NCBI GenBank assembly: GCA_017511325.1
Contig: JAFWKS010000375.1
Span: forward strand, 1-8,780
Source of the DNA: Erysipelotrichaceae bacterium
Lineage (GTDB): Bacteria; Bacillota_I; Bacilli_A; Erysipelotrichales; Erysipelotrichaceae
DNA: 8,780 nt
Reading direction: 5' to 3'
The notes under the pieces are model-generated. The model was not told where the DNA came from and ran no database searches. It worked only from the letters and a program-made list of their open reading frames with translations. Shown one piece after another: positions 2 through 7,587 of this stretch. The number at the start of each line of letters is the position of its first letter. Position 1 is the stretch's first letter. The translations under genes were made by a program, and so were the position numbers.

Positions 2-172
2 ATGAAGCTGGTAAGTCCTTATTCCATACTGATAAGTCAGGATTATTATGCTTTAGATGATATGTTTAAAGAACAGTTCATGATCAGGCATGATAATAAC
101 AAGGATATCTCGCTGTCAGTAAGATCATCGATAATCTTATCGGTTGCCTATCATTTAAAACGCAGTCTGTAA
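2..172 (+). CDS. 3' end of an unrecognised protein (partial at left edge)
   Basis: This frame is open from the window edge to a TAA at 170-172, giving 56 residues that end in HLKRSL. The ATG at 2-4 is probably internal, since the frame runs off the edge and no upstream context is visible. The other two plus-strand frames are closed in this stretch, and the codons (ATC, GAT, TCG, CTG) resemble those of neighbouring genes. I do not recognise the family: the fragment is mixed polar/hydrophobic with no clear motif. Its last 22 bases overlap the 3' end of the convergent radical SAM gene, and no terminator separates the two. It could be non-coding; the case rests only on the open frame and codon look. 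Confidence 0.45.
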   Translation: MKLVSPYSILISQDYYALDDMFKEQFMIRHDNNKDISLSVRSSIILSVAYHLKRSL

Positions 173-957
173 CTGCATTTTCTGCACAGTTCGAATCTGA
201 GCTGATGATTTTTGAATGATTCAATACATTCAAGATATTCTTTTGATCCAAGGATATCTTTTAATTTATCTTTTCTAAGACTGCCGATTCTGTTATGAGC
301 TTTAGGATCAAGGCAGCAGATCGTTACATCCAGATCGGAATTGATGGCGATCATATCGATCGCGCCGTGACATGTACCATTTTTTGAGATAACTGGATCA
401 TTTATATCGGGCCATCTGAACATCTTTTCAAAGTAGACATAGAGATTATCCTTGAGTTTGTATGAATTCTTCCTTTTGGTATCAGCACAGCCGAATCTTT
501 CTTCCAGATCAAGAAGATATGATCTGAGCTTATTATCGAGATTGTCTCTGTCATAGAAACGAAGCTCTATCACTTTGTCATTGTTTTCTATCAGCTTATC
601 GATCGTTTGAAAATATCGATCATCGACATCAATGTTATTGATACTGTGTAAAGAGATCGACAGTTTTCTAAGGGCTCTGTGTTCAAGGATACCCGGATAT
701 CTATATAATAAGGTACCGTTGCTTACAAGCTGCAGTTTTAAACCGTATCCATCAAGAAGATCCATGATCTTTTCAAAATCAGGGTGCAGCAATGGCTCGC
801 CCAGAATATGAAGATAGATGTAATCGCAGATCGGCTTGATCTGAGAAAGACAATCCTGGATTTCCTTAAGACTGAGAAAACTGTTTCCTTTTTCATAAGT
901 GCAGAAGGGACAGTTGAGATTGCAGGCATTTGTTATCTCAAGATAAACACGTTTCAT
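151..957 (-). CDS. Radical SAM protein with short SPASM-like C-terminal Fe-S domain
   Basis: This 268-residue protein should bind a [4Fe-4S] cluster that cleaves S-adenosylmethionine to start radical chemistry. The CxxxCxxC signature is at Cys12, Cys16 and Cys19, directly after a first beta strand (VYLEITNAC). A GEP motif that contacts SAM follows at 53-55. The C-terminal part carries Cys196, Cys214-Cys215 and a Cys258-x2-Cys261 pair. That resembles a reduced SPASM or 'twitch' domain with room for one auxiliary cluster, fewer Cys than a full SPASM. The start is fixed by homology, since the family begins only a few residues before the Cys motif. There is no well-spaced Shine-Dalgarno: an AGGA lies one base before ATG, too close. 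A TATCAT hexamer ends six bases upstream. The substrate is unknown; no precursor peptide gene is visible next to it, so peptide maturation is only one possibility. Confidence 0.88.
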   Translation of the reverse strand: MKRVYLEITNACNLNCPFCTYEKGNSFLSLKEIQDCLSQIKPICDYIYLHILGEPLLHPDFEKIMDLLDGYGLKLQLVSNGTLLYRYPGILEHRALRKLSISLHSINNIDVDDRYFQTIDKLIENNDKVIELRFYDRDNLDNKLRSYLLDLEERFGCADTKRKNSYKLKDNLYVYFEKMFRWPDINDPVISKNGTCHGAIDMIAINSDLDVTICCLDPKAHNRIGSLRKDKLKDILGSKEYLECIESFKNHQLRFELCRKCSYRLRFK

Positions 958-963
958 ATCCTA

Positions 964-969
964 ATGATA
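964..969 (-). promoter_or_regulatory. Probable -10 element (TATCAT) placed for a leaderless radical SAM transcript
   Basis: Read on the minus strand, TATCAT ends exactly six bases before the ATG at 957-955. Transcription would then start at or next to the A of the ATG. The hexamer has one mismatch to TATAAT. A TTTATA 16 bases further upstream is a weak -35 (4 of 6). The same spacing occurs before three other genes here. Confidence 0.45.
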
Positions 970-997
970 ATAAAAAGGAATTTATTATAAAAGCAGA

Positions 998-1026
998 TTG
1001 AATTAAAAGGGAAAATATCGTAATAT
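998..1026 (+). promoter_or_regulatory. Sigma-A type promoter of the riboswitch-ATPase unit
   Basis: TTGAAT at 998-1003 and TAATAT at 1021-1026 are separated by 17 bases, the preferred sigma-A spacing. Each has good agreement with TTGACA/TATAAT. Transcription should begin near 1033-1035, immediately before the riboswitch aptamer, so promoter and leader positions support each other. The region is divergent from the radical SAM gene. Confidence 0.72.
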
Positions 1027-1034
1027 TGTTTTGT

Positions 1035-1126
1035 AAAAATGAGGGAGTAGCATACGTATTGAATATACGTGTCAAGCCAACAATCTCGGCTTAGTGCCTG
1101 GTTTGCCTTAAAATGCGAGACTCATG
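1035..1126 (+). promoter_or_regulatory. yybP-ykoY family Mn2+ riboswitch aptamer
   Basis: The leader has the family's hallmark 5' element GGGAGTAGC (1043-1051) and 3' element GCGAGAC (1115-1121). They are closed by a P1 helix, ATGAG 1039-1043 with CTCAT 1121-1125. The next hairpin pairs 1052-1059 with 1065-1072 (loop TGAAT). Then comes GTCAA and the conserved-looking ACAATCTCGGC segment; 1073-1079 can pair with 1099-1105. Known members of this family bind Mn2+ and usually turn on exporters or P-type ATPases, which matches the gene downstream. The identification is by eye; a covariance-model search (Rfam yybP-ykoY) would settle it. Confidence 0.85.
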
Positions 1127-1148
1127 TATGACTTTGTTGTACATGAGT
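1120..1148 (+). promoter_or_regulatory. Riboswitch switching hairpin (anti-antiterminator)
   Basis: ACTCATGTAT at 1120-1129 pairs with GTACATGAGT at 1139-1148, giving ten pairs (one G-U) around a nine-base loop. Its left arm contains the CTCAT that also forms the 3' side of aptamer P1, so the two helices exclude each other. Its right arm can instead pair with 1160-1166 and break the terminator. It is therefore the element that passes the ligand state from aptamer to terminator. Confidence 0.7.
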
Positions 1149-1159
1149 GACTTAGATGG

Positions 1160-1186
1160 CTCATGTATATACATGAGTTTTATTTT
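1160..1186 (+). terminator. Riboswitch-controlled intrinsic terminator
   Basis: CTCATGTATATACATGAG (1160-1177) is a perfect inverted repeat followed by TTTATTTT-like sequence (TTTTATTTT from 1178). It ends about 18 bases before the ATPase start codon. It lies after the aptamer and switching hairpin, so it is read as the regulated terminator. The left arm 1160-1166 is complementary to 1141-1147, which gives an antiterminator form. Confidence 0.75.
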
Positions 1187-1204
1187 AAGCGGAAAGAGGA
1201 AAGA

Positions 1205-3922
1205 ATGAACAAATTTTATCTAGAAAATGCTGAAGATGTCCTCAAACATGTTGACTCGAATATCGACGGTTTAACTGAGGAAGAAGCAGCGAGAAGACTT
1301 GAAAAGTACGGTAAAAACAAGCTTAAAGAAGCGGAAAAGACACCATTGATCAAAGGATTCATCGAGTCGATCTCTGATCCGATGATCATCATGCTGCTGG
1401 CAGCAGCGGCCATACAGGCTGTAGTCAATGTTCTGCAGATGTCTGAAGGCTTCAAGCTTTCGGAATTTGCGGATGTCATCGTCATCATGGCTGTTGTCGT
1501 CATCAATACCATCATGTCTTTGATCCAGGAATCAAAGGCTGAAGGAGCAATGGAAGCTCTGATGCAGATGACAGCTTCTACTTCAAGAGTATTAAGAAAC
1601 GGTGAAGTTAAGGTCATCAAATCTGAAGACATCGTTTTAGGTGATATCATCCTGTTTGAAGCGGGAGATACAGTAAGTGCAGACTGCAGGATCCTCGAAT
1701 CCCATTCTTTAAAGGCTGAAGAAGCTGCATTGACTGGCGAATCTGTTCCGGTAAACAAGATCATTGATGTATTGATGTGTGAAGAAAACAAGAGCGATAT
1801 CGGATTAGGCGATCGCAAGAATATGCTGTTCAACGGTTCGACTGTCGTTTATGGCCGCGGCAAGGCTGTAGCTGTAGCATGTGGTATGGATTCAGAGATG
1901 GGCAAGATCGCTGATGCATTGAATCAGGCTGAAAAGGAACTTACACCTTTGCAGAAGAAGATGGCCGAACTATCTACCTTCCTTACCAAGCTGGTCATCA
2001 TCATCTGTGTCATAGTCTTTATTTCCGGCATCATTGGCCCATTCATCGCCAATGGCATGTCTTTCACAGGCATTAAATTAGGAAATATTGCATTGAATAC
2101 TTTCATTGCCGCAATCGCTCTGGCGGTCGCCGCGATCCCTGAAGGTCTTCCTGCTGTTGTAACGATCATTCTTTCGATCGGTGTCTCAGCTATGGCAAAA
2201 CGTCAGGCTCTGATCAGAAAACTGACAGCCGTTGAAACATTGGGCTGCACTAATATCATCTGTACTGATAAGACCGGAACCCTTACTCAGAACAAGATGA
2301 CTGTCGTCAAGGAATACAGTTCTGACAAGGAACTTCTGGCTAAGGCTATGGCTTTATGTTCAGATGCCTTCATCAGACCAGGCGATCAAACATCAAGTGG
2401 CGAACCTACTGAAGCTGCTTTAGTAAATTACGCAAATTCATTAGGTCTTCCTAAATATGAACTGGAAAAGGTTGAGCCTAGAAAGGGCGAAGCTCCATTT
2501 GATTCCAACCGTAAGATGATGTCTACTATCCATCCGGCAAAAGATGGATATATACAATACACCAAAGGCGCTTTGGATGTCATGCTGGATCGCTGCGATT
2601 ACTATTTAAGTAAAGACGGCGAGATCAAAATGACTGATAAGCTTAAGGAAGAGATTCTTAATGTAAACAAGCAGTTTGCTTCTGAAGCATTGAGAGTACT
2701 CTGTGCCGCCTATAAGAAATATGAAAAGCTTCCTGCTTCCATGGAGCCGGAAGATCTTGAATTCGGTTTGACTTTCATAGGTGTCGTCGGAATGATCGAC
2801 CCATGCCGTCTGGAAGTCTATGATGCGATCAAGCAGTGCCGCAGTGCCGGTATTACGCCGATCATGATCACAGGCGACCACAAGGATACAGCTGTCGCTA
2901 TCGGTAAGGATCTGGGGATCATCACTGATGCTGCACAGGCTATCGAAGGACATGAACTTGATAAATATGATGACGAACAGATGAAAGAAGTCGTCACCAG
3001 ATATTCTGTCTATGCACGTGTTCAGCCTGAACATAAGACCAAGATCGTCAATGCCTGGAAAGCCAGAGGCATGGTCACAGCCATGACTGGTGATGGCGTC
3101 AACGATGCACCATCGATCAAAGCTGCCGATATCGGTATAGGTATGGGTATTACCGGAACAGATGTAACCAAATCAGTAGCAGATATGGTCCTGGCCGATG
3201 ATAACTTTGCAACGATCGTCAACGCTGTTGAAGAAGGTCGTAAGATCTATGACAATGTCTGCAAGGTCATTCAGTTCCAGCTTTCTACGAACCTTTGTGA
3301 AGTCATAATCATGTTTATTGCATCGATCCTTAATTTCACATTGCTGAAGCCTGTACATCTGCTTTGGATAAACATGGTCACAGACTCACTTCCTGGATTA
3401 GCTCTAGGTATGGAAAAAGCTGAAGGCGATGTCATGACCAGAAAGCCTCGTAGTTCTGAAGATGGCATCTTCGCACACGGCGCTGGTGTAGACATGGTAT
3501 GGCAGGGCCTATATCTTTCAGTTATTGAACTGGCTTCATATTTTATCGGTCTGTATCTGGAGACAGGAAAGCTATCCTTCTTCGCTATTCCGGATTGCGC
3601 GAACGCGATCGCTATGGCTTTCTTGACCGTCAACTTTGCGGAGATCTGCTGCGCAATCAATATGCGTTCACAGAACAAGTCAATCTTCTCTAAAGAAATG
3701 TTCGAACATTTCAACTGGTGGCTGTTCGGTGCAGTTATCGTGACCGTCATAATCACGCTTGCAGCAATATATGTGCCTGGTTTGAGTTCAGTATTCGGTA
3801 TCGAACCTGGAACATTCCAATTAAAAGAACTTATGATCTCCGTTTGTCTGGCATTGTCTACATTCCCAGCTTTCGAGATCGGAAAAGCTATCAAAAGAAA
3901 TACACTGTTAAAGGCTCAATAA
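1205..3922 (+). CDS. P-type Ca2+/Mn2+-transporting ATPase (type IIA), riboswitch controlled
   Basis: This 905-residue membrane pump couples ATP hydrolysis to metal export. The start is the ATG at 1205, preceded by AGAGG with five-base spacing. An in-frame ATG at 1163 lies inside the terminator stem and is rejected. Motifs in order are TGES 177-180 (actuator), PEGLP 312-316 in M4, DKTGTLT with phosphorylated Asp355, TGD 556-558 and TGDGVND 628-634 (hinge). Residues matching SERCA's Ca2+ ligands are all present: Glu313 (M4), Asn696 and Glu699 (M5), Asn723, Thr726 and Asp727 (M6), and Glu813 (M8). The length fits the bacterial Ca2+-ATPase family (about 880-910). The Mn2+ riboswitch upstream argues for Mn2+ export, as for other yybP-ykoY-controlled P-type ATPases. 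The ligand set equally permits Ca2+. The stop codon lies in the loop of the downstream terminator. Confidence 0.93.
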   Translation: MNKFYLENAEDVLKHVDSNIDGLTEEEAARRLEKYGKNKLKEAEKTPLIKGFIESISDPMIIMLLAAAAIQAVVNVLQMSEGFKLSEFADVIVIMAVVVINTIMSLIQESKAEGAMEALMQMTASTSRVLRNGEVKVIKSEDIVLGDIILFEAGDTVSADCRILESHSLKAEEAALTGESVPVNKIIDVLMCEENKSDIGLGDRKNMLFNGSTVVYGRGKAVAVACGMDSEMGKIADALNQAEKELTPLQKKMAELSTFLTKLVIIICVIVFISGIIGPFIANGMSFTGIKLGNIALNTFIAAIALAVAAIPEGLPAVVTIILSIGVSAMAKRQALIRKLTAVETLGCTNIICTDKTGTLTQNKMTVVKEYSSDKELLAKAMALCSDAFIRPGDQTSSGEPTEAALVNYANSLGLPKYELEKVEPRKGEAPFDSNRKMMSTIHPAKDGYIQYTKGALDVMLDRCDYYLSKDGEIKMTDKLKEEILNVNKQFASEALRVLCAAYKKYEKLPASMEPEDLEFGLTFIGVVGMIDPCRLEVYDAIKQCRSAGITPIMITGDHKDTAVAIGKDLGIITDAAQAIEGHELDKYDDEQMKEVVTRYSVYARVQPEHKTKIVNAWKARGMVTAMTGDGVNDAPSIKAADIGIGMGITGTDVTKSVADMVLADDNFATIVNAVEEGRKIYDNVCKVIQFQLSTNLCEVIIMFIASILNFTLLKPVHLLWINMVTDSLPGLALGMEKAEGDVMTRKPRSSEDGIFAHGAGVDMVWQGLYLSVIELASYFIGLYLETGKLSFFAIPDCANAIAMAFLTVNFAEICCAINMRSQNKSIFSKEMFEHFNWWLFGAVIVTVIITLAAIYVPGLSSVFGIEPGTFQLKELMISVCLALSTFPAFEIGKAIKRNTLLKAQ

Positions 3923-3937
3923 AGAGCCTTTTATTTT
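3909..3937 (+). terminator. Intrinsic terminator of the ATPase transcript
   Basis: AAGGCTC (3911-3917) pairs with GAGCCTT (3924-3930) across a six-base loop, and TTATTTT follows. The ATPase stop codon TAA (3920-3922) sits in the loop. The U-tract runs straight into the TATAAT at 3937-3942 that serves the next gene. Confidence 0.8.
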
Positions 3938-3942
3938 ATAAT
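3937..3942 (+). promoter_or_regulatory. Perfect TATAAT six bases before the ydcF-like ATG
   Basis: TATAAT ends at 3942 and the ATG begins at 3949, so a normal -10 to start distance places the transcript start on the ATG itself. No -35 is recognisable (GCTCAA at the 17-base position) and there is no TG extension. On its own this would be weak, because it sits in a T/A-rich terminator tail. It gains weight from the identical arrangement at three other genes. Confidence 0.45.
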
Positions 3943-3948
3943 CAGTTT

Positions 3949-4479
3949 ATGAATATCATTATTCTCTTTCTGCTGATTTATGCCTTGCTTATTTATGCTT
4001 TCTCTTTTGAAAAGGAAGAAACGGGTGTGGATTATCTGATCGTTTTGGGATGCAGACTTGAAAATGACGAGCCAGCTAAAGAATTGATCGAAAGGATTGA
4101 TAGAGCTGTTTTATTTCTTAAAAAAAACCCGGAATGCAAAGTCATCGTGAGTGGTGGCATCACTCAAGGAAACAGTAAAAGCGAAGCTGAAGTCATGTAT
4201 GATCTTCTAATCGATAGAGGCATTGAGCCAGACAGGATAATAAAAGAAGATCAGGCTAAGGATACCTATGAGAACTTCTTTTACAGCAAAAAGCTGCTGG
4301 AACAGGGTAAGAAAGTCTGTTTTTGCAGCAGTGATTATCATATTCTTAGAAGCAAACTGATGGCTATGAAGAATAGACTTAAAACCTACAATATATGCAG
4401 CCACAGTTCTATAAAAGATAAAATCATTCATCTTCCCCTTGAAGAATACTTCATAATACAGAATATGATAAAAAAGTAA
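3949..4479 (+). CDS. YdcF/SanA-like (DUF218) protein with N-terminal membrane anchor
   Basis: This 176-residue protein has a hydrophobic segment at about residues 2-19. A DUF218 fold core follows: DYLIVLGCR at 28-36, the SGG turn at 68-70 and SEAEVM at 78-83, then a DTYEN segment. Family members are anchored at the outer face of the membrane and have been linked to cell-envelope functions; their reaction is not well defined. The longer frame reaching back to 3718 overlaps the ATPase out of frame and is not used. The chosen ATG lacks a Shine-Dalgarno. An alternative GTG at 4027 has AGGAAG eight bases upstream and would give a soluble 150-residue form without the anchor; I prefer the ATG because the anchor is typical of the family. 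It starts 26 bases after the ATPase stop, beyond a terminator, so it is probably transcribed separately. Confidence 0.8.
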   Translation: MNIIILFLLIYALLIYAFSFEKEETGVDYLIVLGCRLENDEPAKELIERIDRAVLFLKKNPECKVIVSGGITQGNSKSEAEVMYDLLIDRGIEPDRIIKEDQAKDTYENFFYSKKLLEQGKKVCFCSSDYHILRSKLMAMKNRLKTYNICSHSSIKDKIIHLPLEEYFIIQNMIKK

Positions 4480-4572
4480 GCTGATTCGTATTGTTATTTT
4501 GGTTGAAGAGCTTTTAGTGATTAAAATATCAAAGATTTAGCTAAAGATTTATAATTAGAATACGACTTTTGA

Positions 4573-5158
4573 TCAGAACCCGATCTTCATCTGAGTGATA
4601 AAAGCATCATCGAGATTGATACTTCATACATTTCAGGAGGAAGTTGCGGTGTTGTTTTCGACGATCAGATTATAAAAATTCAAAGATAATTGCTGTTCAA
4701 GGGTTCTGATTGTAAATGAGACTGTAATAAATTCAAAAACAGTATTAAGTCTTGCTATGGTATTTGAATTGATATTCTGACTGAAAACAAACTTAGATTG
4801 ATTATAGAATTATTCTGTCTGGTTCTTATTTGCATTATATCGACAATTATGTCGCAAAAAGCAAATGAGAGATCATTATTTGTAGTTGTGAACAGATCTA
4901 ACTAACTGGTATTTATAGATCTGAAGGTATAAGGCAGTTCAACGATAGTGTTTTCTTCAATCTGTATATCCGATAAAAAAGTTTCAGTTTATGGCTGGGA
5001 ATTGATTAAAGAGTGCTAATACGTAGAAAACAGTGCTATAAACATCGTCGTCAAAAAAGTTCTCGCTGTTTGGCATACAGGACAATGGCAGTGCAGTTGC
5101 TTATGACGGCAGAACGATCACACCAACATATTCGATCCCAAAAACGGGAATTGAATAA
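4573..5158 (+). pseudogene. Decayed coding remnant(s) in an otherwise gene-free 737-bp stretch
   Basis: Between 4480 and 5216 I find no intact gene, but several fragments read like protein. 4573-4689 encodes a 38-residue piece containing SYISGGSCGVVFDD, ending in TAA. 4682-4780 continues in another frame. 4933-5106 is open except for one TAA at 5017. 5042-5158 is open in the next frame and encodes GIQDNGSAVAYDGRTITP and a natural-looking end (TGIE then TAA). The last two frames overlap across a six-A run at 5053-5058, a likely slippage site. This is best read as one gene lost by stops and frameshifts. I cannot name the family. The flank 4480-4572 shows only an 18-codon scrap. It may instead be unrelated non-coding DNA. 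Confidence 0.42.
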
Positions 5159-5170
5159 TCGATCTTAGTA

Positions 5171-5199
5171 AAGGACTTTCTGACAGACAGAAGGTCCTT
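5171..5199 (-). terminator. Hairpin downstream of the TtcA-like gene, probable terminator
   Basis: AAGGACTTTCTG (5171-5182) and CAGAAGGTCCTT (5188-5199) form a 12-pair stem with one G-U and a five-base loop. It starts 18 bases past the stop of the minus-strand ttcA-like gene. The U-tract is weak on both strands (TTTACT on minus, TTATAATAAA on plus). It may act in both directions, also ending transcripts that cross the decayed region. Confidence 0.6.
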
Positions 5200-5216
5200 A
5201 TAATAAATAAACCGGA

Positions 5217-5966
5217 TCACTTTGGATCCAGCTTGTGCATATAAAGATTGATATGTTCCTTGTTGTATAAGGAGAGAAGGAAATTCTCTTTTGCCTGAGG
5301 ATATTCACGATATATAGAATGAAGCAGTTCCTTGATATCCTGTCTTTTGGTGAATCCATCGTTTGGACATCCGGATTTTATGACGGGGATCTCCAGTTTA
5401 CGGCATACTTTCGCAATATCCGATTCGAAAGATAGACAAAACGGTCTGATGAATGTCGTCTGCGAATCGGTAAGAAACATTTTAGGATCGAAAGTAGCGA
5501 TCCTTCCGCCATAGATCATATTCATGAACATCGTTTCGATGGCATCATCCGCATGATGAGCAAAGGCGATCTTATTGCAGCCAAGTTCCTTGGCTTTTTT
5601 AATGACAGCGCCTTTTTTAAGTGTTGAACAGACTGAACATGGTATCTTCCCCTTATGCCTGTTTAGTTCAAGGATCTCTCTGATCCTGGATTTTTCATAA
5701 TGGATCTCAATAGGATATTTGCTGAACCACTCCTTGAGCGGGGTGATATCCTCTTCACCGAAATCCAGATCGATATGAATACCGATGAAATCAAAAGTCT
5801 TATTATAAGTATTCACAAAGAGAAATTTATACAGATAAAGCATGTACAGAAGCAAGGATGAATCCTTGCCTCCGGAAAGACCTACTGCGATCTTATCGTT
5901 GTCTTCGATCATCGAAAACATTTGATCTGCTTTTCTGACCTGTGCCAATAACTTTTTTGTAGACAT
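5217..5966 (-). CDS. ttcA: TtcA-like tRNA 2-thiocytidine synthetase (PP-loop ATPase)
   Basis: This 249-residue cytosolic enzyme is expected to adenylate C32 of certain tRNAs and replace the oxygen with sulfur, giving s2C. It has the PP-loop SGGKDS at 31-36, a PCSVC motif with Cys110 and Cys113, and a third Cys at 200 (SGCPND). Three Cys in these places hold the [4Fe-4S] cluster in E. coli TtcA. HHADDAIETMFMNMIYGG around 134 closely resembles the family's HH-DD-T-F-N-YGG block. It is shorter than E. coli TtcA (311) and lacks that protein's extensions. I chose the second Met (5966-5964) over the one at 5984, because a TATAAT ends six bases before it and would be transcribed over if the first Met were used. 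Thiolation of C32 is inferred from family; related PP-loop enzymes with other substrates cannot be excluded. Confidence 0.8.
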   Translation of the reverse strand: MSTKKLLAQVRKADQMFSMIEDNDKIAVGLSGGKDSSLLLYMLYLYKFLFVNTYNKTFDFIGIHIDLDFGEEDITPLKEWFSKYPIEIHYEKSRIREILELNRHKGKIPCSVCSTLKKGAVIKKAKELGCNKIAFAHHADDAIETMFMNMIYGGRIATFDPKMFLTDSQTTFIRPFCLSFESDIAKVCRKLEIPVIKSGCPNDGFTKRQDIKELLHSIYREYPQAKENFLLSLYNKEHINLYMHKLDPK

Positions 5967-5972
5967 ATTGAT

Positions 5973-5978
5973 ATTATA
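5973..5978 (-). promoter_or_regulatory. TATAAT six bases before the ttcA-like ATG
   Basis: On the minus strand TATAAT is followed by ATCAAT and then ATG, so the predicted transcript start is the ATG. A possible -35, ATGACT (4 of 6 to TTGACA), lies 16 bases upstream and extends into the truB start codon. No Shine-Dalgarno is present. Confidence 0.6.
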
Positions 5979-5983
5979 TACCA

Positions 5984-5992
5984 TGTTATAAT
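5984..5992 (+). promoter_or_regulatory. Extended -10 promoter (TGTTATAAT) six bases before the truB ATG
   Basis: TG at 5984-5985, one base, then a perfect TATAAT at 5987-5992 make an extended -10, which explains the absence of a recognisable -35. The ATG follows after six bases (GCAGTC), so the mRNA should start on the initiation codon. No Shine-Dalgarno exists in front of truB. Confidence 0.65.
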
Positions 5993-5998
5993 GCAGTC

Positions 5999-6841
5999 AT
6001 GGGGAATGTATTGTATATCGATAAACCAAAGGGTATGACATCATTTGATGTCTGTTATAGATTAAGAAAAGTATTGGGCACAAAGAAGATCGGCCATACC
6101 GGAACCCTTGATCCCAATGCGACAGGGGTGATGATCGTTTTGTTTGACAAAGCAACAAAAGCCAATCAGTTTTTGACAAGTGATAATAAGGAATATGAGT
6201 GTCGTGTGCTTTTCGGCATTGAAACGGATACTCTTGATACGGATGGAAAGATCGTCCTGAAGCAGGAATATAAAATGCCTTCAAAGGACGACATCAGTTC
6301 AATACTGAACGGTTTTTTAGGTGAGTCATTTCAGGAAGTGCCAAAGACCTCAGCTGTGAGTGTCGATGGCAAAAGACTTTATCAGTATCAAAGAGAGAAG
6401 ATCGAAGTAAAACTTCCTGTGCGGAAGATAAATATATACGAGATAGAACTTCTGGATCTGCAGGAAGACGGCTTTTCTTTCAGGGCTAAAGTATCTTCAG
6501 GCACTTACATCCGTTCATTGGTAAGAGATATCTGCCACAAACTAGGTCTTATAGGAACAGTCAGTGAACTAAGAAGGACTAAAGTCGATCAAGTAGATCT
6601 TTCAATGTGCGATGCTCTTGAAGAGATCGAGAAAGGAAACTACCATACTCATGACTTGATCGATCTGCTGGCTCAAACATATGAAACAATCGAATATGAT
6701 CCTGTACAGGATATTTATAACGGCAAAAAGATAAAAATAGATTCGCTTGCGGAAAAAGTTTTGATCATTAAAGATGATAAAGCTTTGGCTATCTATGAAA
6801 AAGACGGTGATCTATACAGATCTGCCAGGGGGCTCTGGTGA
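5999..6841 (+). CDS. truB: tRNA pseudouridine(55) synthase TruB
   Basis: This 280-residue enzyme converts U55 of the T-loop of tRNAs to pseudouridine. The N-terminus (IDKPKGMTSFDV, residues 7-18) and the catalytic block GHTGTLDPNATG (32-43) are diagnostic. The catalytic aspartate is Asp38, equivalent to Asp48 in E. coli. The Tyr-containing KEYECRVLFGIETDTLDTDG segment (about 65-84) and the SSGTYIRSL motif, about two-thirds along, complete the core. The last 60 residues are a small PUA-like domain. The start codon is well constrained, because the family's conserved sequence begins within six residues. Here truB is first in its operon; the usual upstream Firmicute partner rbfA is absent. It is followed by ribF with GTGA start/stop overlap. 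Confidence 0.96.
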   Translation: MGNVLYIDKPKGMTSFDVCYRLRKVLGTKKIGHTGTLDPNATGVMIVLFDKATKANQFLTSDNKEYECRVLFGIETDTLDTDGKIVLKQEYKMPSKDDISSILNGFLGESFQEVPKTSAVSVDGKRLYQYQREKIEVKLPVRKINIYEIELLDLQEDGFSFRAKVSSGTYIRSLVRDICHKLGLIGTVSELRRTKVDQVDLSMCDALEEIEKGNYHTHDLIDLLAQTYETIEYDPVQDIYNGKKIKIDSLAEKVLIIKDDKALAIYEKDGDLYRSARGLW

Positions 6842-7587
6842 AGAAGATTCTTATTAAAGACAGTGAATTTGAAATAAAAGAAAGAAATGTTGCCTGTATC
6901 GGTTATTTTGACAGCGTACATCTTGGCCATCAGGATCTTCTAAACAAAGCAATAAGTGAAGCTAAGAGACTTGGACTTAAAAGTGCCTTGATCTGTTTTT
7001 CTCCTGATCCAGCCGATATAATTTCAGGAAAAAGGAACAGACACATCTTTTCGAACAAGGAAAAAGAGAATATCGTTCGTGATTTCGGCATCGATATGAT
7101 GATAATCATATCTTTTGATGAAAAGCTGATGAAGCTTGAAGCAAGGGAATTTATTGAAAGATATCTCAACAGAATGAACATCGAAGAACTTGTGAGTGGT
7201 TTTGATTTCTCTTTCGGATATATGGGCTCAGGTGACAACAGGCTTTTAAAGAAATATGGGAATTTCAAAAGCATCGTCATCCCTGAACATACACATTACG
7301 GAAAGAAAGTATCTTCAACAAGGATCAAAGAAGAATTGAATAAAGGCAATCTAAAGCTTGTGGATAAGCTGTTAGGTTATCCTTATTATCGCAATCTCAA
7401 AGTCATAAACGTCTCTCAAAACGGCTCAAAATGGCTCATAGAAGCGATCCAGAAAGAAAAAGACATAATAGAAATAAAAGATGGAAAATATGAAGGATTC
7501 ACACTTGAGAACGGAATCTACCGTTTTGAAAGTGACGTTCCTTATAGAAAAAACGAAAGCATAAAGTTTTATGTCAATAAACAATGA
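6838..7587 (+). CDS. ribF: RibF-like FMN adenylyltransferase lacking a recognisable riboflavin kinase domain
   Basis: This 249-residue protein should make FAD from FMN and ATP. The nucleotidyltransferase domain is intact: GYFDSVHLGHQ at 22-32 with the HxGH motif (28-31), the GFDFSFGYMGSGD segment near 121-133, and VSSTRIK at 158-164. Family RibF proteins are about 300-320 residues, with a C-terminal riboflavin kinase that starts after a LLGRPYSISG-like linker. Here the linker is recognisable (LLGYPYYRN, 178-186), but only 63 residues follow and the kinase's GFPTANL and GVY motifs are missing. The enzyme may therefore be monofunctional. The gene starts with GTG overlapping the truB stop (GTGA). 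An AGGGGG with five-base spacing is the strongest Shine-Dalgarno in the operon. Confidence 0.88.
   Translation: MKKILIKDSEFEIKERNVACIGYFDSVHLGHQDLLNKAISEAKRLGLKSALICFSPDPADIISGKRNRHIFSNKEKENIVRDFGIDMMIIISFDEKLMKLEAREFIERYLNRMNIEELVSGFDFSFGYMGSGDNRLLKKYGNFKSIVIPEHTHYGKKVSSTRIKEELNKGNLKLVDKLLGYPYYRNLKVINVSQNGSKWLIEAIQKEKDIIEIKDGKYEGFTLENGIYRFESDVPYRKNESIKFYVNKQ

What the first reader, a model, noticed from the sequence alone, without database searches (positions are those of the whole stretch)
958..5998. Four start codons share TATAAT-N6-ATG geometry: predicted leaderless mRNAs
A -10-like hexamer ends exactly six bases before the ATG of four genes: TATAAT before the ydcF-like gene (3937-3942), ttcA (5973-5978, minus) and truB (5987-5992), and TATCAT before the radical SAM gene (964-969, minus). 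None of the four has a usable Shine-Dalgarno, and homology independently constrains the starts of truB, ttcA and the radical SAM gene. The ATPase (conventional leader) and ribF (internal) have ordinary Shine-Dalgarno sites. A -10 six bases from ATG is the signature of leaderless transcripts in Deinococcus and Actinobacteria. It is not the standard mode in Firmicutes, so widespread use here would be notable.
Basis: partly seen in the sequence, partly recalled or inferred. Interest (0 to 1): 0.75.

Follow-up and report, generated by a model that had tools for sequence, protein, structure and literature searches.

The report
Leaderless genes with start-codon promoters
In a gut bacterium of the Erysipelotrichaceae, several genes carry their promoter so close to the start codon that the messenger RNA most likely begins at the start codon itself; related genomes show that this is a real and conserved habit, of a kind already known from streptococci, actinobacteria and Deinococcus.

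Summary
In detail: TATAAT (three genes) or TATCAT (one) ends exactly six bases before the ATG of the DUF218 gene, truB, ttcA and the radical SAM gene. A TATAAT-like hexamer ends at distance 6 in 37 of 300 leading genes (mean at distances 14-44: 8.1) and in 3 of 257 operon-internal genes. Six related genomes pooled repeat it (28 of 235 against 6.4); four outgroups pooled do not (3 of 188 against 5.4). Two signals not used to pick these genes agree: a pyrimidine before the start codon (59 of 65) and an upstream TG (22 of 65). All four window hexamers keep their distance in G001. Of 40 divergent starts 20-50 bp apart, 31 carry the hexamer at 6-8; such spacing is rare in non-user genomes. The divergent ttcA-truB pair is 32-49 bp apart where truB is leaderless and wider elsewhere. 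Best reading: about a tenth of leading genes are leaderless. The kind is known in Bacillota: streptococci show 8.6-9% by RNA mapping. Transcript ends are untested.

The parts
964..969 (-). -10 element TATCAT of the radical SAM/SPASM gene, ending 6 nt before ATG 957
   Evidence: TATCAT at the same distance in L001; absent from L002; in L004 TATAAT 6 nt before an ATG one codon upstream
151..957 (-). radical SAM/SPASM protein, predicted leaderless
   Evidence: no other in-frame start before an upstream stop
1205..3922 (+). P-type Ca2+-ATPase-like gene, SD-led (GAGGAAAGAATG): contrast within the window
3910..3931 (+). intrinsic-terminator-like hairpin after the ATPase gene, next to the DUF218 promoter
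   Evidence: -11.2 kcal/mol, z -3.64
3937..3942 (+). -10 element TATAAT of the DUF218 gene, 6 nt before ATG 3949
   Evidence: kept in L001 (6 nt) and L002 (7 nt)
3949..4479 (+). DUF218 (ydcF/elyC-like) gene, predicted leaderless
5973..5978 (-). -10 element TATAAT of ttcA, 6 nt before ATG 5966; -35-like ATGACT at 6000-5995, 16-nt spacer
5217..5966 (-). ttcA-like gene, predicted leaderless from ATG 5966 (the longest ORF would start at 5984)
5984..5992 (+). extended -10 TGTTATAAT of truB, ending 6 nt before ATG 5999
5999..6841 (+). truB, predicted leaderless; no other in-frame start before an upstream stop
5967..5998 (.). 32-bp gap between the ttcA and truB start codons, holding two back-to-back -10 elements
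   Evidence: identical in L001; gap 32-49 bp in 11 loci with a leaderless-type truB, wider in the 12 other loci that have the divergent pair

Best explanation
The four genes are read from sigma-A-type promoters whose -10 element ends six bases before the start codon, so RNA polymerase begins on the A of ATG and makes a leaderless mRNA. Ribosomes then take up the 5'-terminal AUG without a Shine-Dalgarno contact. Shown by sequence: the motif, its exact spacing, its enrichment at leading genes of related genomes, its conservation, and a pyrimidine-purine initiator at the start codon. Inferred: the transcript start itself and the mode of ribosome recruitment. In this lineage about a tenth of leading genes work this way beside a majority of others, and the habit goes with very short intergenic gaps that hold little more than promoters.
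For: G001: 37 of 300 leading genes at distance 6, mean over distances 14-44 8.1 (largest 13), p 2.7e-14; 300 dinucleotide shuffles mean 6.35, largest 13; operon-internal 3 of 257. Leading genes with no other upstream start: 30 of 169 against 5.5. After dropping 17 paralogue-like genes: 32 of 290 against 7.9. Six further genomes pooled 28 of 235 against 6.4, p 1e-10; exact TATAAT 16 against 0.97. Position -1 is C/T in 59 of 65 against 163 of 302 other leading genes without SD (p 4e-9); TG at -15/-14 in 22 of 65 against 46 of 418 hexamers at distances 14-41 (p 9e-6). Orthologue groups: of 21 with the hexamer at distance 6 in any member, 8 have it in two or more; at distances 13-40 it is 12 of 123. 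Same pipeline: Deinococcus deserti plasmid 2 TANNNT 6 of 79 against 0.48 (TATAAT-like 1 of 79 against 0.03); E. coli 0 of 84 for both. All four window motifs are kept in L001. ttcA and truB starts lie 32 bp apart.
Against: No RNA 5'-end data. The window's genome is not held; the evidence comes from relatives. About 8 of the 37 G001 cases are expected by chance. Some genomes are not significant alone (G029 2 of 27, G031 2 of 29). The stricter whole-genome pattern with TG is not significant in G001 (6 against 3 and 3, p 0.18). In the six other genomes operon-internal genes also show a small excess (8 of 207 against 2.9, p 0.01), so the leading/internal contrast is clean only in G001, or my 30-bp cut mislabels some (as it would DUF218). 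The radical SAM hexamer is missing in L002 and in the G013 orthologue. SD absence is largely forced by geometry.
Confidence: 0.9

Rival explanations
1. The true starts lie further downstream, so the hexamers are ordinary -10 elements of leadered mRNAs.
For: Start codons were chosen by coding score, and some genes have several candidates.
Against: truB homologues begin at the same residue, within a few, across the order; the radical SAM start is forced on the 5' side and lies 11 residues before its first cysteine of the CxxxCxxC motif. A mixture of wrong starts would not give a peak at exactly 6, nor a pyrimidine at -1. The peak stays with 5'-forced starts.
Confidence: 0.04
2. Chance: AT-rich gaps in a 39% GC window give TATAAT near ATG now and then.
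Against: Window 2.6e-6, G001 p 2.7e-14, shuffles never above 13 against 37, outgroup genomes without a pooled peak.
Confidence: 0.01
3. The AT-rich block before the ATG is a ribosome (S1-type) contact on a leadered mRNA, not a promoter.
For: Nakagawa et al. (PMC5397173, passages) warn that AT-rich bias upstream of non-SD genes may be S1 binding rather than a Pribnow box.
Against: A contact site would not need the exact TATAAT letters, a fixed spacing, the TG at -15/-14, or a pyrimidine at -1; and it should not be rare inside operons in G001. An S1-like protein with about 340 matched positions is found in only 3 of 59 order genomes, none of them users.
Confidence: 0.02
4. Very short leaders (1-5 nt) rather than strictly leaderless transcripts, with some start-site slippage.
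For: Exact TATAAT also lies above background at distances 7-10 (2, 6, 3, 5 against 1.55 in G001; 9, 4, 2, 1 against 0.97 in the other six genomes); orthologues drift between 6, 7 and 8.
Against: The main peak is at 6, where the start-codon A is the expected +1 and -1 is a pyrimidine.
Confidence: 0.05

Closest known systems
Leaderless mRNAs of Streptococcus (PMC6431027, passages)
   Same: Bacillota; 8.6% of S. pyogenes mRNAs, about 9% in S. agalactiae and S. pneumoniae; 54 of them (81%) shared by S. pyogenes and S. agalactiae
   Different: Mapped by RNA-seq there, predicted here; another order; I did not compare gene lists or divergent-pair spacing
TA-led genes of Zheng et al. 2011 (PMC3160421, passages)
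   Same: TATAAT-like signal about 12 bp upstream counted from its first T, mixed with SD-led genes; TG before the box in several low-GC genomes
   Different: In Firmicutes they report them concentrated in Lactobacillales and Mycoplasma (56 of 209 genomes, mean 4.2%); the string 'Erysipelo' has 0 occurrences in the main text
Leaderless genes of Deinococcus
   Same: Same peak at distance 6 in my pipeline on 150 kb of D. deserti plasmid 2
   Different: TANNNT rather than TATAAT; Zheng et al. give 35.9-46.1% of genes in Deinococcus-Thermus
Bidirectional promoters of E. coli (PMC12825309: abstract start in listing; a term search of its text found none of five terms) and Salmonella plasmids (PMC10268837: abstract start only)
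   Same: Divergent starts so close that one polymerase binding event prevents the other
   Different: Those are described as pseudo-symmetrical sequences; here two separate -10 elements lie back to back (8 bp apart in the window), each before a leaderless gene; 'leaderless' does not occur in PMC12825309

Membership tests
Bacterial leaderless genes | -10 element ending about 6 nt before the start codon | tested here: met
Bacterial leaderless genes | Transcription start on the start codon | not testable with these tools
   only indirect: -1 pyrimidine in 59 of 65; all four window genes have C or T at -1
Bacterial leaderless genes | No Shine-Dalgarno | tested here: inconclusive
   0 of 65 with SD, but the hexamer occupies the SD positions, so this is largely forced
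Bacterial leaderless genes | At leading genes rather than inside operons | tested here: met
   G001: 37 of 300 leading against 3 of 257 internal; other six genomes 28 of 235 leading, but also 8 of 207 internal against 2.9
Bacterial leaderless genes | Translation from a 5'-terminal AUG | not testable with these tools
   needs a reporter or ribosome profiling
Pseudo-symmetrical bidirectional promoters | One shared element read in both directions | tested here: not met
   ttcA and truB have separate -10 elements (5973-5978 and 5987-5992)

The most novel reading that the evidence does not exclude
Back-to-back leaderless promoter pairs are a lineage-wide architecture: gaps of about 29-50 bp hold little but two promoters, each expected to cover the other gene's start codon, so polymerase binding is mutually exclusive and ties the expression of two genes (ttcA with truB, guanylate kinase with an RlmA-like gene, peptide deformylase with an ftsW/rodA-like gene). 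In the order the divergent ttcA-truB gap shrank when truB became leaderless. The architecture is seen in the sequences; the exclusion and coupling are untested.
Probability: 0.4. Interest if true: 0.6.

Novelty: new member of a known kind. Interest (0 to 1): 0.42.

Why it matters
It adds a clade of Erysipelotrichaceae to the Bacillota that use leaderless genes, and shows the habit to be patchy within one order, so that the order offers a natural comparison of gain and loss. Gene finders that expect SD sites may place some starts wrongly here (ttcA is a likely example). The compact divergent leaderless pairs, ttcA-truB above all, give a simple testable system for promoter exclusion.

Tried and rejected
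Loss of a ribosomal protein as the cause: bS21 is found in 56 of 59 order genomes. An rpsA-like protein with about 340 matched positions is the best match in only G016, G026 and G051 of 59, whose pattern ratios are 0.5, 0.4 and 0.6, but three genomes prove nothing. 16S rRNA was sought in seven relatives to read the anti-SD and not found, 0 of 7. Rfam found nothing in the window. I first guessed that the divergent genes of 186-190 aa were TetR regulators; Pfam shows rhomboid, NUDIX, guanylate kinase and deformylase instead, so there is no regulator theme. The whole-genome pattern with TG flags 10 of 59 genomes at p below 0.01, uncorrected, and 3 as low; it misses G001, and it flags G021, which I had counted among the outgroups and non-users (gene test 3 of 63 against 0.97, p 0.07). 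The user set (11 genomes) rests on thin gene-level evidence for G003 (2 of 13), G027 (1 of 30), G029 and G031. G044 varies by region: 12 of 31, then 3 of 22. Pairwise orthologue concordance (15 of 56 pairs against 12 of 211) counts truB six times, so I use the count per orthologue group instead.

Full report
WHAT WAS CLAIMED.

THE OBSERVATION. Reading the window confirms all coordinates. The genes are a radical SAM/SPASM protein, a P-type ATPase, a DUF218 protein, a TtcA-like enzyme, TruB, a RibF-like FAD synthetase and an RsmB/F-like methyltransferase. truB and the radical SAM gene have no other in-frame start before an upstream stop; ttcA has a second ATG 18 nt upstream, DUF218 a TTG and a GTG upstream inside the ATPase gene. 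truB has an extended -10 (TGTTATAAT). ttcA has a -35-like ATGACT at 16 nt and is the best promoter match in 3850-6050 (10 of 12), although that scan as a whole finds no more promoter-like sites than shuffles do (6 against 8.5). The ATPase has an SD-like site.

THE HOST. No genome is held for the window. TruB places it beside a goat-ileum MAG, Erysipelotrichaceae bacterium RGIG2348 (79% identity; L001, handle G001).

THE GENOME-SCALE TEST. I called genes with a codon-usage score, choosing starts without looking upstream, in 662 kb of G001. A hexamer with at most one mismatch to TATAAT ends at distance 6 in 37 of 300 leading genes (upstream gap at least 30 bp, or a divergent neighbour), against a mean of 8.1 over distances 14-44 and a largest value of 13; in operon-internal genes it is 3 of 257. 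Three hundred dinucleotide shuffles gave mean 6.35, largest 13. Six other genomes with TruB 49-67% identical gave 28 of 235 against 6.4 pooled; their internal genes gave 8 of 207 against 2.9. Four outgroup genomes of the order gave 3 of 188 against 5.4. With ten further genomes the results run from strong (G044 12 of 31) through weak (G042 4 of 34, G003 2 of 13, G008 2 of 35, G027 1 of 30) to nil (G019, G037, G015, G061, G035). With more sequence G044 has 15 of 53. Different motif definitions put the excess in G001 at 7-13% of leading genes.

INDEPENDENT SIGNALS. In the 65 distance-6 genes of seven genomes, the base before the start codon is C or T in 59, against 163 of 302 other leading genes without SD, 112 of 168 leading genes with SD and 220 of 464 internal genes; TG stands at -15/-14 in 22, against 46 of 418 TATAAT-like hexamers further upstream (tests). 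These fit a pyrimidine-purine initiator on the start codon and extended -10 promoters. The absence of SD in this set (0 of 65) is largely forced by overlap and proves little.

CONSERVATION. In seven genomes, 167 reciprocal-best pairs form 105 orthologue groups; 21 groups have the hexamer at distance 6 in some member and 8 have it in two or more (truB, ttcA, nusB, guanylate kinase and four others), against 12 of 123 group-distance cases at distances 13-40. Some discordant members carry it at 7 or 8. The four window hexamers sit at the same distance in L001. In L002 DUF218 has it at 7, ttcA at 6, truB at 7, and the radical SAM gene lacks it; in L004 truB and ttcA have it at 6 and the radical SAM gene has TATAAT six bases before an ATG one codon upstream.

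THE ttcA-truB PAIR. Of 40 loci with truB in hand, 23 have a divergent ttcA next to it; some of the other 17 are short or end nearby, so absence there is not shown. Eleven of the 23, chosen because truB looked leaderless (the window included), have gaps of 32-49 bp between starts; truB has a one-mismatch hexamer at 6-7 in 10 of the 11 and ttcA at 6-8 in 8 of the 11. Measured between the aligned protein parts, the 11 gaps are 33-59 bp and the 12 others 63-136 bp, without overlap. The alternative ATG 5984 would leave ttcA 14 bp from truB.

COMPACT DIVERGENT PAIRS. In 11 user genomes (1300 genes after removing paralogue-like copies) there are 40 divergent starts 20-50 bp apart, and 31 carry the hexamer at 6-8 (26 at exactly 6); in 10 non-user genomes (669 genes) there are 2 such starts and neither carries it. 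User status was set from the same kind of data, so the hexamer count is partly circular; the rarity of the spacing in non-users is not. Co-directional cases also favour short gaps: 24 of 199 at 20-80 bp against 7 of 234 above 80 bp, and 10 of 542 below 20 bp. DUF218 in the window is such a case: a 26-bp gap holds most of a terminator-like hairpin and its -10.

GENES. Pfam on 36 of the 37 G001 cases, the remaining one being the radical SAM orthologue, shows many housekeeping genes: uracil-DNA glycosylase, NusB, guanylate kinase, an RlmA-like enzyme, RimM, alanine racemase, a MurD-like ligase, peptide deformylase, FtsW/RodA, RapZ, a DprA-like protein; YceD and three others match below Pfam's cut-off, and two had no match. 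I did not run a matched control set, so no enrichment is claimed.

DISTRIBUTION. A TruB tree of 37 rows puts the window, G001-G004, G013, G023, G029, G031 and G044 in one clade (100/99), all labelled users, some on thin evidence; G027/G042 and G017 fall elsewhere. One gene tree cannot settle gains and losses. The TG-extended pattern at N6 against N4 and N16 is raised at p below 0.01 in 10 of 59 order genomes and lowered in 3 (counts; no correction for many tests).

AGAINST THE LITERATURE. Streptococcal dRNA-seq finds 8.6-9% leaderless mRNAs (PMC6431027, passages); C. difficile only 15 genes (PMC7438776, passage); Enterococcus under 1% (PMC7724050, passages); Mycoplasma gallisepticum nine transcripts (PMC4245973, passages). 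Zheng et al. predicted TA-led genes in 56 of 209 Firmicutes genomes (PMC3160421, passages). StartLink authors cite predicted leaderless transcription in 21.6% of bacterial species (PMC9581028, passages). A search for 'leaderless' with 'Erysipelotrich' lists five papers; the passages of two do not report leaderless genes in this group, and the other three I know from title and abstract start only. So the kind is known in the phylum, and this lineage seems a new member; subscription papers were not searched.

VERDICT. Real, conserved and most likely leaderless; ordinary in kind, with the compact divergent pairs as the most interesting extension.

Noticed in passing
window 4470-5225: The stretch between DUF218 and ttcA matches, in several frames, scattered parts of a 1184-aa open frame that stands at this place in L001: a decayed gene remnant in the window.
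   Followed up: partly
window 6838-7587: The RibF-like protein (249 aa) shows the FAD synthetase domain but no riboflavin kinase domain in Pfam at E 0.001.
   Followed up: no
L038 and L039 (G001 contigs C4 and C11): Two diverged copies (49-82% protein identity) of a block of about ten genes with rhomboid, patatin, methyltransferase and NUDIX genes: a segmental duplication or a mixed MAG.
   Followed up: partly
G016, G026, G051: Only these 3 of 59 order genomes have an rpsA-like best match of about 340 positions near 250 bits; all three have pattern ratios below 1.
   Followed up: partly
L188, divergent genes listed at 11831 (-) and 13060 (+), G044: Another divergent pair, 35 bp apart, with a leaderless-type hexamer on both sides in one short AT-rich gap.
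   Followed up: no
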